Source: Olivibacter domesticus (lineage in GTDB: Bacteria; Bacteroidota; Bacteroidia; Sphingobacteriales; Sphingobacteriaceae). Taken from it: a DNA stretch of 64,000 nucleotides. Both the position numbers and the translations under genes were made by a program. The notes beneath the pieces are model-generated. The model saw nothing but the letters and a program-made list of their open reading frames with translations, was not told where the DNA came from and did not search any database. Positions 35,527 to 38,323 of this stretch are shown one piece after another (position 1 is the first letter of the stretch; each line of letters begins with the position of its first letter). The stretch lies in NCBI RefSeq assembly GCF_900109575.1, contig NZ_FOAF01000001.1:124001-188000 (forward strand), read 5' to 3'.

Positions 35527-36573
35527 TCAAAAATAGGTTTTAACCGCAAATTTGAATTGTTCTATAAATATTTCCTTGAAAACACTGATATTATTCTGCT
35601 CATAAAAGATCAGCATCGCTTTTTTGTATTCAACAGAATCAATGGTCCTAAAGGAGATTGGGCAGTACTGATTGGCAATCAGAATGGCGTTACTAATAAT
35701 CCGTACCGTTCGTTTGTTACCATCGTTAAAGGCCTGGATATAGGATAACAGTACTAGCGCTAACAGGGATTTTTCGAATATGTTTTTCTTGTTATTAATG
35801 AGGTTACACATACCTTCGAGAGCTTCCCTTATCTGATGTTCATTGTCCAAAGGTTTATAATTTGTGCCTGAAATACCTACGCGGCGTTGTCTGATGTTGC
35901 GTTCTACCGGAAGATCCTTAACTAGGATGCTATGTATATCTTCAATTCTTGCTATGGTCAAAGGCACGACATAATCAGGATTATCAATAATAAAGTTTAA
36001 TGCTTCTTTGTGATTTAAGAGCATGGTTGCATCATCTTTCGGTTTTCCCGCGGCGGTCTCTTTGTCCTTTAGCAGACGTTCCGTTTCCAGCAAAGAATAG
36101 GTGTTGCCTTCGATCTGTGATGATTTCCAACTCAGATCGATGGCAAGTCTTTCCATTTCTTTATTGTACACATCTGGGCTCATGTGCGCTATGTTATGTC
36201 GAAATTCTTCTTGCAATTGCTGTAGAGTGTTAGCTTCTTCCGCGGTAAAGACGTCGACTTCGGCCAAGATCTCCCTGACCAGTTGAAAATTAAATCCTTC
36301 TTGAATATCACGTTCATCAATCTCTTTTTCAAAGTAAGCAGCAATATCAATATGCCCCAAAAGCTGATTTGCTGAACTTACCTGATATCGGGTTGCACGA
36401 CGCTGGCCCTCGGATAAAACTTGTCCGTTTTTCAGCAAATTAGCAATGGCCCGCTTCACGGTAGCATAAGAACCCTTACCGATGCCTTTATGGATTTCAG
36501 GAGAGGAACTTAATGGGTTCTCTCGTAGGAATTTAATAATGTCATTGTCGATCTGTGCCATAATAAAGCTCAC
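35527..36573 (-). CDS. Fic-domain protein with N-terminal winged helix and altered active-site motif
   Basis: This 348-residue protein has an N-terminal winged-helix-like domain (residues 8-68, EIHKGIGKGSYATVKRAIAN). The class II inhibitory helix reads SSQIEGN. The Fic core reads SYIQAFNDGNKRTVR. The canonical motif is HxFx(D/E)GNxRxxR, and here the catalytic His is Gln and the next Pro is Ala, while the Asp, Gly, Asn and Arg anion-hole residues remain. AMP transfer may be lost or altered. The start could be the second ATG (36561), because a copy of the operator motif overlaps the first. Eight operator-like sites lie upstream, which suggests autoregulation by the winged helix. Confidence 0.85.
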   Translation of the reverse strand: MSFIMAQIDNDIIKFLRENPLSSSPEIHKGIGKGSYATVKRAIANLLKNGQVLSEGQRRATRYQVSSANQLLGHIDIAAYFEKEIDERDIQEGFNFQLVREILAEVDVFTAEEANTLQQLQEEFRHNIAHMSPDVYNKEMERLAIDLSWKSSQIEGNTYSLLETERLLKDKETAAGKPKDDATMLLNHKEALNFIIDNPDYVVPLTIARIEDIHSILVKDLPVERNIRQRRVGISGTNYKPLDNEHQIREALEGMCNLINNKKNIFEKSLLALVLLSYIQAFNDGNKRTVRIISNAILIANQYCPISFRTIDSVEYKKAMLIFYEQNNISVFKEIFIEQFKFAVKTYF

Positions 36574-36719
36574 ATGTTTTCTTTTATAAGCTCAAATATA
36601 CGGATAAATGAGCTTATTTGTTGAGGATTTTGAGCTTATTTTAATGATGAGCTCAAATTGTATCCATTTTAAGCTCAAATAATCAGCTTTTTGAACTTAA
36701 AATCGTTTGTGATTGAGCT
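36567..36719. promoter_or_regulatory. 22-bp-periodic operator array upstream of the Fic gene
   Basis: Eight copies of a TGAGCTTAt/aTAAGCTCA motif have AGCT (or AACT) centres at 36568.5, 36590.5, 36612.5 and 36634.5, then 36651.5, 36673.5, 36695.5 and 36717.5. These are two sets of four with exact 22-bp pitch, 17 bp apart. In each set the first two sites point one way and the last two the other way. Confidence 0.75.
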
Positions 36720-36838
36720 TATTATTTCCATTCTGCAATTGTAGTCTACACACCTCATTAAGCATTAAAATACACAGATGTTCAACTTTGACTAAAAACC
36801 GCTCTTTTGCAGAACTAATTGTCAAGAGTAGTTTAATA

Positions 36839-38323
36839 TCAATTTTTGTCTTTTAAATAATTACTAGCGTTAGAATTGTCTGGGTTGAGTTCAAGAGATT
36901 TTTTATAATTTATAATGGCTTCTTTCTGATATCCCAATGTTGCTAATATTTCGCCATAACTGTCATATACATTCCAGCTATTGGGAAATAGAGTAGTATT
37001 TAATTTGAAAATTTGTAAAGCTTCATTTTTATGCTTTTGTTCTAAAAGTTGATAGCCCCAAGAATTTATTTCGTCTTCTGTTACTGTAAAATTCTTGTTT
37101 TGTTTCTCAACTTTCTTGTAAATATCATTGACGTTTTTAAAATCATTTTTTAAGAGTTCATGACGTAATAATTTTAAGTTTTTACTCAATCCAAATCCAT
37201 TTTCTCTTTTCATATCCGGAATATAAAACCCCGCTATCTCGTCAATAAACCATTCAGGATTTGAACCTTGTAGGTTTGTTAAAACAACGATGGATAAATC
37301 ATCTTGAGGATATACGAATAATGTGGACCGCATTCCACCGACAGGAGCTACCGCCGGATGTTCTTCTCTCACTACTGTTGGCCATCCCAAAGCATAGCCA
37401 TTTGTTAACTTATTAAAGCCCCCTATTTCTCCACTATTCAATCTTGCTGTGGTAAACATTTGATCGATACTTGCTTGACTCGTTAGTAGTTTTCCATTTT
37501 GCAATGCGATAAGCCATTTACTTAAATCTTCTGCAGTAGAGATAATTCCTGTAGCAGTTCTAAAAAATAAAGGGAAAGTGGCATAAGAATTATGCAGTTT
37601 CCCGTCATTTATCCATTTCCCACTGTCATTATAAATAGTCGAATATGAGTTTGAATTATTTGGGATAATGTCATTAGAATCTCCAAATTGCGTGGATTTA
37701 ATAATACAAGGTTTAAATTGATTTTCAGCAATAAACTGAGTAAAATGTTGTCCACTTACTTTACTAAGTATCCTCCCCAAAATATAATAACCTGTTTGAT
37801 TGTAACTGAATCTTTCTCCAGGAGAGAACTCTATTGGCAGCTTTTTCACCAGTTCCCAGTTTTCGTTTTCAGTACCGTCACCCAACACTTGCTCTTTTTC
37901 GTCTATATTGTTTGGAAGCCCGGAAGTGTTACTCAATAACTGTTCAATCTTTATTGACTTCCATTCGTTGGGAATATCGGAAATATAAAGGGAAATGGGA
38001 TCTTTCACACTTAGTTTTCCTCGTTCTTGTAATTGCATAATTGCTACGCCAACAAACGCTTTAGTCATAGAATTAATGGAGAAGGTGGTCTTAGAATTTG
38101 TAGCAATTTGATGTTCTAAGTTTGCAAACCCATAGCTACCCGACTTTTCTAATTTTCCATTTTTCACAACGGATAACTGAAGTCCAGGGATTTTGAGTTG
38201 TTCCATTTTTTCTTTGATAAATGTATCAATGCTATCTGAGACAGTTTGAGCTTTTATTGGGAGTGAAAAAGCTAATATAAATGAGAACAAAATAATTTTT
38301 ACTGCATTCAATAATTCGTTCAT
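36839..38323 (-). CDS. Secreted serine hydrolase (beta-lactamase/class C family) with TPR-like tail
   Basis: This 494-residue protein has a signal peptide (IILFSFILAFSLPIKAQ). The serine beta-lactamase-like fold has SMTK (SxxK, in FSINSMTKAFVG, about residue 83), YNQTGYYILG (YxN-like, about 172) and a later HPAVAPVGGMRS block. The C-terminal 100 residues contain a TPR-like pair (LNTTLFPNSWNVYDSYGEIL, then YKKSLELNPDNSNA). It is the last of three secreted-hydrolase genes on this strand. The substrate is unknown and resistance is not implied. Confidence 0.85.
   Translation of the reverse strand: MNELLNAVKIILFSFILAFSLPIKAQTVSDSIDTFIKEKMEQLKIPGLQLSVVKNGKLEKSGSYGFANLEHQIATNSKTTFSINSMTKAFVGVAIMQLQERGKLSVKDPISLYISDIPNEWKSIKIEQLLSNTSGLPNNIDEKEQVLGDGTENENWELVKKLPIEFSPGERFSYNQTGYYILGRILSKVSGQHFTQFIAENQFKPCIIKSTQFGDSNDIIPNNSNSYSTIYNDSGKWINDGKLHNSYATFPLFFRTATGIISTAEDLSKWLIALQNGKLLTSQASIDQMFTTARLNSGEIGGFNKLTNGYALGWPTVVREEHPAVAPVGGMRSTLFVYPQDDLSIVVLTNLQGSNPEWFIDEIAGFYIPDMKRENGFGLSKNLKLLRHELLKNDFKNVNDIYKKVEKQNKNFTVTEDEINSWGYQLLEQKHKNEALQIFKLNTTLFPNSWNVYDSYGEILATLGYQKEAIINYKKSLELNPDNSNASNYLKDKN

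What the first reader, a model, noticed from the sequence alone, without database searches (positions are those of the whole stretch)
36567..36719. Two sets of four operator-like sites with exact 22-bp pitch before the Fic gene
AGCT (one AACT) centres lie at 36568.5, 36590.5, 36612.5, 36634.5 and at 36651.5, 36673.5, 36695.5, 36717.5. Each step is 22 bp, about two helical turns. In each set the orientation of TGAGCTTA is reverse, reverse, forward, forward. The Fic protein has its own winged-helix domain, so an autoregulatory nucleoprotein array is likely. One site overlaps the first ATG.
Basis: seen in the sequence. Interest (0 to 1): 0.75.

Follow-up and report, generated by a model that had tools for sequence, protein, structure and literature searches.

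The report
Periodic operator array of Fic-like repressor
A gene for a Fic-like protein with its own DNA-binding domain is preceded by eight evenly spaced binding sites that sit on its promoter and are conserved across a bacterial phylum, almost certainly so that the protein controls itself, and the same four-site pattern turns up, without the gene, in many phage genomes, often right beside tRNA genes.

Summary
Two sets of four sites, TGAGCY-N-YA, lie at 22-bp steps (orientation R R F F) before the Fic gene; the sets are 17 bp apart. The four-site pattern occurs nowhere else in the window and never in 100 shuffles. Among 81 homologous loci the 22-bp steps recur 62-72 times against about 0.1 expected. 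Sites stay while spacers drift to background. The Bacteroidota -7 box TAnnTTTG falls only at fixed offsets on the array. More distant relatives keep an array but use other site sequences, each with its own winged helix; His-type Fic genes have none.

Two additions. The protein belongs to a Fic clade in which the catalytic His is Gln in 81/81. And the four-site array occurs alone in at least 22 lineages of IMG/VR viral contigs, without a Fic gene, within 12 bp of a tRNA gene in 10 (0.4 expected). Known relatives: CccR and CbFic2 (Fic + C-terminal HTH) and the unexplained 'D2' Gln clade. I class it as a new variant of HTH-Fic autoregulation; the phage arrays are the surprising part.

The parts
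35527..36561 (-). CDS of the wHTH-Fic protein (344 aa, P0001); start ATG 36561-36559
   Evidence: start conserved in homologs; Pfam Fic E=9.6e-13
36364..36561 (-). N-terminal winged helix-turn-helix (helices 2-14, 20-27, 32-44; wing strands 48-51, 58-61)
   Evidence: AlphaFold2 model, pLDDT 82-93 here; PHROG MarR-like match residues 3-67, E=1.6e-7
36103..36123 (-). class II inhibitory motif SSQIEGN (residues 147-153)
   Evidence: invariant in 81/81 homologs
35710..35736 (-). degenerate Fic motif QAFNDGNKR (residues 276-284): catalytic His replaced by Gln
   Evidence: Gln in 81/81 homologs; also Gln in the divergent and proteobacterial members whose motif was read
36565..36572 (-). site F4 of proximal set (TGAGCTTT on the Fic strand)
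36587..36594 (-). site F3 of proximal set (TGAGCTTA), fused to the -7 box
36593..36600 (-). Bacteroidota-type -7 promoter element TATATTTG (TAnnTTTG) overlapping site F3
   Evidence: same -10 offset in 18 of 46 loci; only four offsets used in all 46
36609..36616 (+). site R2 of proximal set
36631..36638 (+). site R1 of proximal set
36648..36655 (-). site F4 of distal set (TGAGCTCA, symmetric)
36670..36677 (-). site F3 of distal set
36692..36699 (+). site R2 of distal set (TGAACTTA)
36714..36721 (+). site R1 of distal set

Best explanation
The eight sites are the operator of the downstream gene, bound by that gene's own product. Shown: a winged-helix/Fic protein of a clade without the catalytic histidine is preceded by one or two R-R-F-F sets of 12-bp sites on one face of the DNA, overlapping its promoter. 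Inferred: a two-fold symmetric oligomer, probably a tetramer or two cooperating dimers held by the Fic domains, uses four winged helices to grip one set. Two sets make a larger complex that covers the -7 box and keeps the gene at a low, self-limiting level until the protein is removed or changes state. The Fic domain, which keeps the inhibitory S/TxxxEGN motif but not the catalytic His, then serves as an oligomerisation or ligand-sensing part more likely than as an AMP-transferase.
For: 22-bp steps recur in 81 homologous loci: RR 62, FF 72 and RF 64 times against about 0.1 or less expected. The site has an A at +4, not used to find it, in 264/286 cases. Between proteins below 65% identity, sites are 75% and spacers 36% identical. 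Gaps vary in steps of a helical turn: 22 to 32, 17 to 28, 22 to 11. TAnnTTTG lies only at offsets -10, +1, +10 or +12 from the proximal F3 centre. Within a locus all four sites share the same drift, as one binder would impose. Distant relatives have arrays of other sites: TGAGCG, TGTCC, TGATAG, TGTCGC, ATCGTTTC. Repeat enrichment upstream has median z 6.5 for Gln-type genes and 0.3 for His-type. In 201 family genomes, 13 of 15 genes have the strict array beside them, and no second clean array was found away from a Fic gene or its remains in those genomes. The wHTH is predicted with good confidence. A Fic protein with a C-terminal HTH, CccR, is a proven autorepressor (PMC9755527).
Against: No binding or expression data. 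Site change and wHTH change are both tied to phylogeny, so the covariation is qualitative. Orphan arrays exist in seven family genomes that lack the gene, and in phages, so the sites may have another binder or another role. Activation rather than repression is not excluded: no clear -33 element was seen.
Confidence: 0.85

Rival explanations
1. The array is bound by another, widely shared regulator of Bacteroidota, and the Fic gene is only one of its targets.
For: Orphan arrays occur without the gene in seven family genomes and in many phages.
Against: Within family genomes the strict array is beside the Fic gene or its remains in most clean cases, and genomes that carry the gene have no second clean array elsewhere. 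Site sequence changes with the Fic protein's own winged helix. A profile of that winged helix finds only the two Fic proteins in the host genome.
Confidence: 0.08
2. The inverted sites form an RNA structure, such as a leader or small RNA, rather than DNA sites.
For: R and F sites are complementary, and phage arrays often lie between or beside tRNA genes.
Against: Spacers that would extend the stems pair no better than chance: 0.396 against 0.427 in Fic loci, 0.417 against 0.414 in phages. The -7 box puts most of the array upstream of transcription. Same-strand site pairs covary as much as opposite pairs. No Rfam match in the window.
Confidence: 0.04
3. The protein still modifies a target and the array only limits a toxin, i.e. 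an autoregulated one-gene toxin or abortive-infection system like SoFic. (Compatible with the best explanation for the array; it differs on what the protein does.)
For: The inhibitory motif is invariant. PADLOC hits SoFic (E=1e-17) and PDC-S04. The gene is patchy, without fixed neighbours and often broken. Khater and Mohanty argue that Gln at this place may retain some activity.
Against: The catalytic His is absent in all members whose motif was examined, and the GNKR motif is not the AMP-transferase GNGR form. No activity data.
Confidence: 0.3

Closest known systems
CccR of Yersinia pseudotuberculosis (PMC9755527)
   Same: Fic domain plus HTH; represses its own gene by binding inverted repeats at its promoter
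   Different: HTH is C-terminal; canonical catalytic His (H192) with AMPylation; one pair of 10-bp repeats separated by 26 bp, not sets of four at 22 bp
CbFic2 of Coxiella burnetii (PMC10628234)
   Same: class II Fic with a winged HTH; DNA binding induces dimers
   Different: C-terminal HTH, HPFDDGNGR active enzyme; no operator array reported in the passages read
Doc subfamily clade D2 of Khater and Mohanty 2015 (PMC4454073)
   Same: motif Qx[F/Y]x[D/E][G/V]NKR fits this protein (G form) and the 460-aa relatives (V form)
   Different: described there as usually single-domain with no function; here an N-terminal winged helix and operator arrays are found
SoFic anti-phage protein (PMC12249575; PADLOC PDLC03963)
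   Same: Fic fold; best PADLOC hit
   Different: SoFic acts by AMPylation; this clade lacks the catalytic His

Membership tests
Fic AMP-transferase (SoFic-like) | catalytic His in HxFx[D/E]GN[G/K]R | tested here: not met
   Gln in 81/81 homologs
Fic AMP-transferase (SoFic-like) | Fic fold | tested here: met
   Pfam E=9.6e-13; Foldseek to FICD, 3CUC and SoFic at E<=1.4e-6
class II Fic | inhibitory (S/T)xxxE(G/N) N-terminal to the Fic core | tested here: met
   SSQIEGN invariant
Doc clade D2 (Khater and Mohanty) | Qx[F/Y]x[D/E][G/V]NKR | tested here: met
   QAFNDGNKR in the window; DVNKR form in the 460-aa clade
Doc clade D2 (Khater and Mohanty) | usually single-domain | tested here: not met
   N-terminal wHTH predicted
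HTH-Fic autorepressor (CccR type) | HTH domain on the Fic protein | tested here: met
   N-terminal here, C-terminal in CccR
HTH-Fic autorepressor (CccR type) | inverted sites over its own promoter | tested here: met
HTH-Fic autorepressor (CccR type) | protein binds and represses | not testable with these tools
   needs EMSA and a reporter assay
two-gene Fic toxin-antitoxin | cognate antitoxin gene next door | tested here: not met
   no neighbour (ORFs of 80 aa or more) shared by more than 7 of 80 loci; antitoxins shorter than 80 aa were not covered

The most novel reading that the evidence does not exclude
Phages carry one intact copy of the host repressor's four-site operator, typically at the 3' end of a tRNA gene, as a DNA element that engages the host Fic-like protein: a decoy that soaks it up, or a switch by which it acts on the phage. 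That would be counter-defence or defence sensing by operator DNA alone, aimed at a Fic clade without catalytic histidine.
Probability: 0.4. Interest if true: 0.92.

Novelty: new variant of a known kind. Interest (0 to 1): 0.77.

Why it matters
It gives a testable molecular role, DNA-binding self-control, to a Fic clade that was set apart in 2015 for lacking the catalytic histidine and left without a function. It offers an unusually regular operator whose spacing is kept while the rest of the promoter drifts, a ready system for studying how oligomers count helical turns. The repeated presence of the same operator in unrelated viral contigs points to a phage-host conflict that no paper found here describes.

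Tried and rejected
RNA-structure reading: spacer pairing at chance. Regulon reading: no second clean array away from a Fic gene or its remains in gene-bearing family genomes. Conserved partner gene: none. tRNA-linked insertion of the Fic gene: no Fic locus with a recognised array is within 400 bp of a tRNA. Phage-encoded Fic or matching winged helix: none in the contigs searched, apart from one 24-residue marginal hit at E=0.006. Five named phage records, four of them huge uncultured phages, had no array. Attempts to assign phage hosts by DNA similarity were inconclusive.

Full report
What is there. The window lies in a 6.8-Mb genome (G000:C10:124001-188000) whose closest Fic relatives come from Sphingobacteriaceae-type Bacteroidota. 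The gene runs on the minus strand, 36561-35527. The upstream gene (36839-38323, minus strand, with the look of a serine beta-lactamase-like hydrolase with TPR-like repeats) points the same way, so the array serves only the Fic gene. The four-site pattern is unique to this place in the window and absent from 100 shuffles. The conserved start ATG is just outside the last site.

Conservation. A scan of genome contigs gave 80 homologous loci, 61-90% identical, mostly Bacteroidota with a few labelled Neomarinimicrobiota. In the 260 bp before these genes plus the window's own, motif pairs at 22 bp occur 62 (RR), 72 (FF) and 64 (RF) times, against 0.1 or less in shuffles. Strict seeds cover 61 of the 81 loci; most of the others have arrays with 32-, 21- or 11-bp steps or a changed core, and a few have too little upstream DNA or one or two sites only. 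The second set is 16-20 or 28-31 bp from the first in most double arrays, again about one helical turn apart. Within 286 sites the motif is WW-TGAGCY-N-YAW; the A at +4 (264/286) was not part of the seed, and positions beyond about 8 bp carry no information. Between proteins under 65% identity, site columns are 75% and spacer columns 36% identical.

Promoter. In 46 loci with a clear inner pair, the Bacteroidota -7 element TAnnTTTG occurs only at offsets -10 (18), +1 (5), +10 (10) or +12 (5) from the proximal F3 centre, and nowhere else from -40 to +60. In the window it is TATATTTGAGC: box and site share bases. That TAnnTTTG is the Bacteroidota -7 element is my own knowledge. This favours repression by occlusion, but I saw no clear -33 element, so an activator role cannot be excluded.

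The protein. AlphaFold2 (mean pLDDT 92.6) gives an N-terminal winged helix and a Fic domain; nearest folds are FICD, BT_2513 and SoFic. The Fic motif is Q[A/P]FxDGNKR: Gln replaces the catalytic His in 81/81, while the inhibitory SSQIEGN is invariant. Khater and Mohanty (PMC4454073) recognised such a Gln clade, D2, in 2015 without a function.

Covariation. Members at 43-48% identity to the query used keep arrays but may change site: L166 TGAGCG at 22-22-22; L168 TGTCC at 22-20-22; L150 TGATAG at 21-11-22. A second clade of about 460 aa (motif DVNKR), present once more in the window's own genome (G000:C13:70319-71671), has TGTCGC sites in alternating order, often 16-18 and 23 bp apart. Its relative L174 has five TGGCGC sites at exactly 20 bp. 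Proteobacterial plasmid members show ATCGTTTC (L358) and AATCAGCTC (L361) repeats by inspection. A repeat count upstream, blind to the site sequence, gives a median z of 6.5 in 19 Gln-type genes and 0.3 in 16 His-type Fic genes (p=1.4e-6). Different winged helices go with different sites; this is the best evidence short of experiment that the protein itself binds.

Distribution. In 201 family genomes about 15 carry the intact gene, and several carry only remains. It has no conserved partner. Thirteen of the 15 have the strict array beside it; G089's intact copy fails the strict pattern, apparently because one step is 21 bp as in its near relatives, and G127 uses TGATAG. Seven genomes without an ortholog have a clean orphan array; I read these as leftovers or independent captures, but cannot decide.

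Phages. An exact scan of IMG/VR found 37 arrays, only four of them beside a Fic gene. A relaxed scan gave 86 arrays in 29 lineages; 24 lineages pass the independent +1/+4 test, and 22 of these have no Fic gene nearby. In 29 contigs tested there is one array each and no homolog (one search had no built-in positive control, and the contigs may be fragments). In 17 of them plus five named phage records the winged-helix profile also found nothing convincing, with the host genome as positive control. In ten of the 22 lineages the array is within 12 bp of a tRNA gene, 0.42 expected and at most 5 in 200,000 simulations; in nine of the ten it follows the 3' end of the tRNA. Starting from a neighbouring HNH gene instead of the array, 21 of 79 scorable loci have the array with 0-2 mismatches and the rest are at background (8 or more), and sites are 96% against 71% identical for spacers. 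So the arrays appear to be kept by selection in these viral genomes. Which hosts they infect was not established. Some flanking proteins are clearly phage (terminase); several have no PHROG match.

Reading. Autoregulation by the encoded protein is the best explanation (0.85). The tetramer model, the repressor sign and the role of the Fic domain are inferred. For the phage arrays I favour a decoy or switch that acts on the host protein, but at modest odds (0.4): they could also be operators of an unrecognised phage regulator, or relics kept for another reason.

Noticed in passing
L178-L190, L192-L194, L196-L212, L303-L349 (IMG/VR contigs); e.g. L215:1777-1844: Orphan R-R-F-F arrays in at least 22 viral lineages without a Fic gene, 10 of them within 12 bp of a tRNA gene, mostly at its 3' end; sites conserved and spacers drifting.
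   Followed up: partly
L090, L097, L105, L107, L112, L114, L118 around position 1501: Clean orphan arrays in chromosomes that lack the Fic ortholog: between a response-regulator gene and kdpA (L112, L114), and upstream of a HipBST-like operon (L105).
   Followed up: partly
G000:C13:70319-71671 (L089, L172): A second Gln-type wHTH-Fic gene (about 460 aa) in the same genome, with its own array of TGTCGC sites.
   Followed up: partly
L174:1-1347: A relative with five TGGCGC sites at exactly 20-bp pitch, all in one orientation.
   Followed up: no
L337:1846-3366: An array-bearing phage contig encodes a nicotinamide phosphoribosyl transferase, a type of gene reported in phage NAD+ counter-defence (own knowledge).
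   Followed up: no
L357 (Bacteroides finegoldii plasmid NZ_OY725910.1): N-terminally truncated Fic copy (64% identical) without wHTH start and without array, probably a remnant.
   Followed up: no
window 36839-38323: Upstream gene on the same strand looks like a serine beta-lactamase-like hydrolase with C-terminal TPR-like repeats; not examined further.
   Followed up: no
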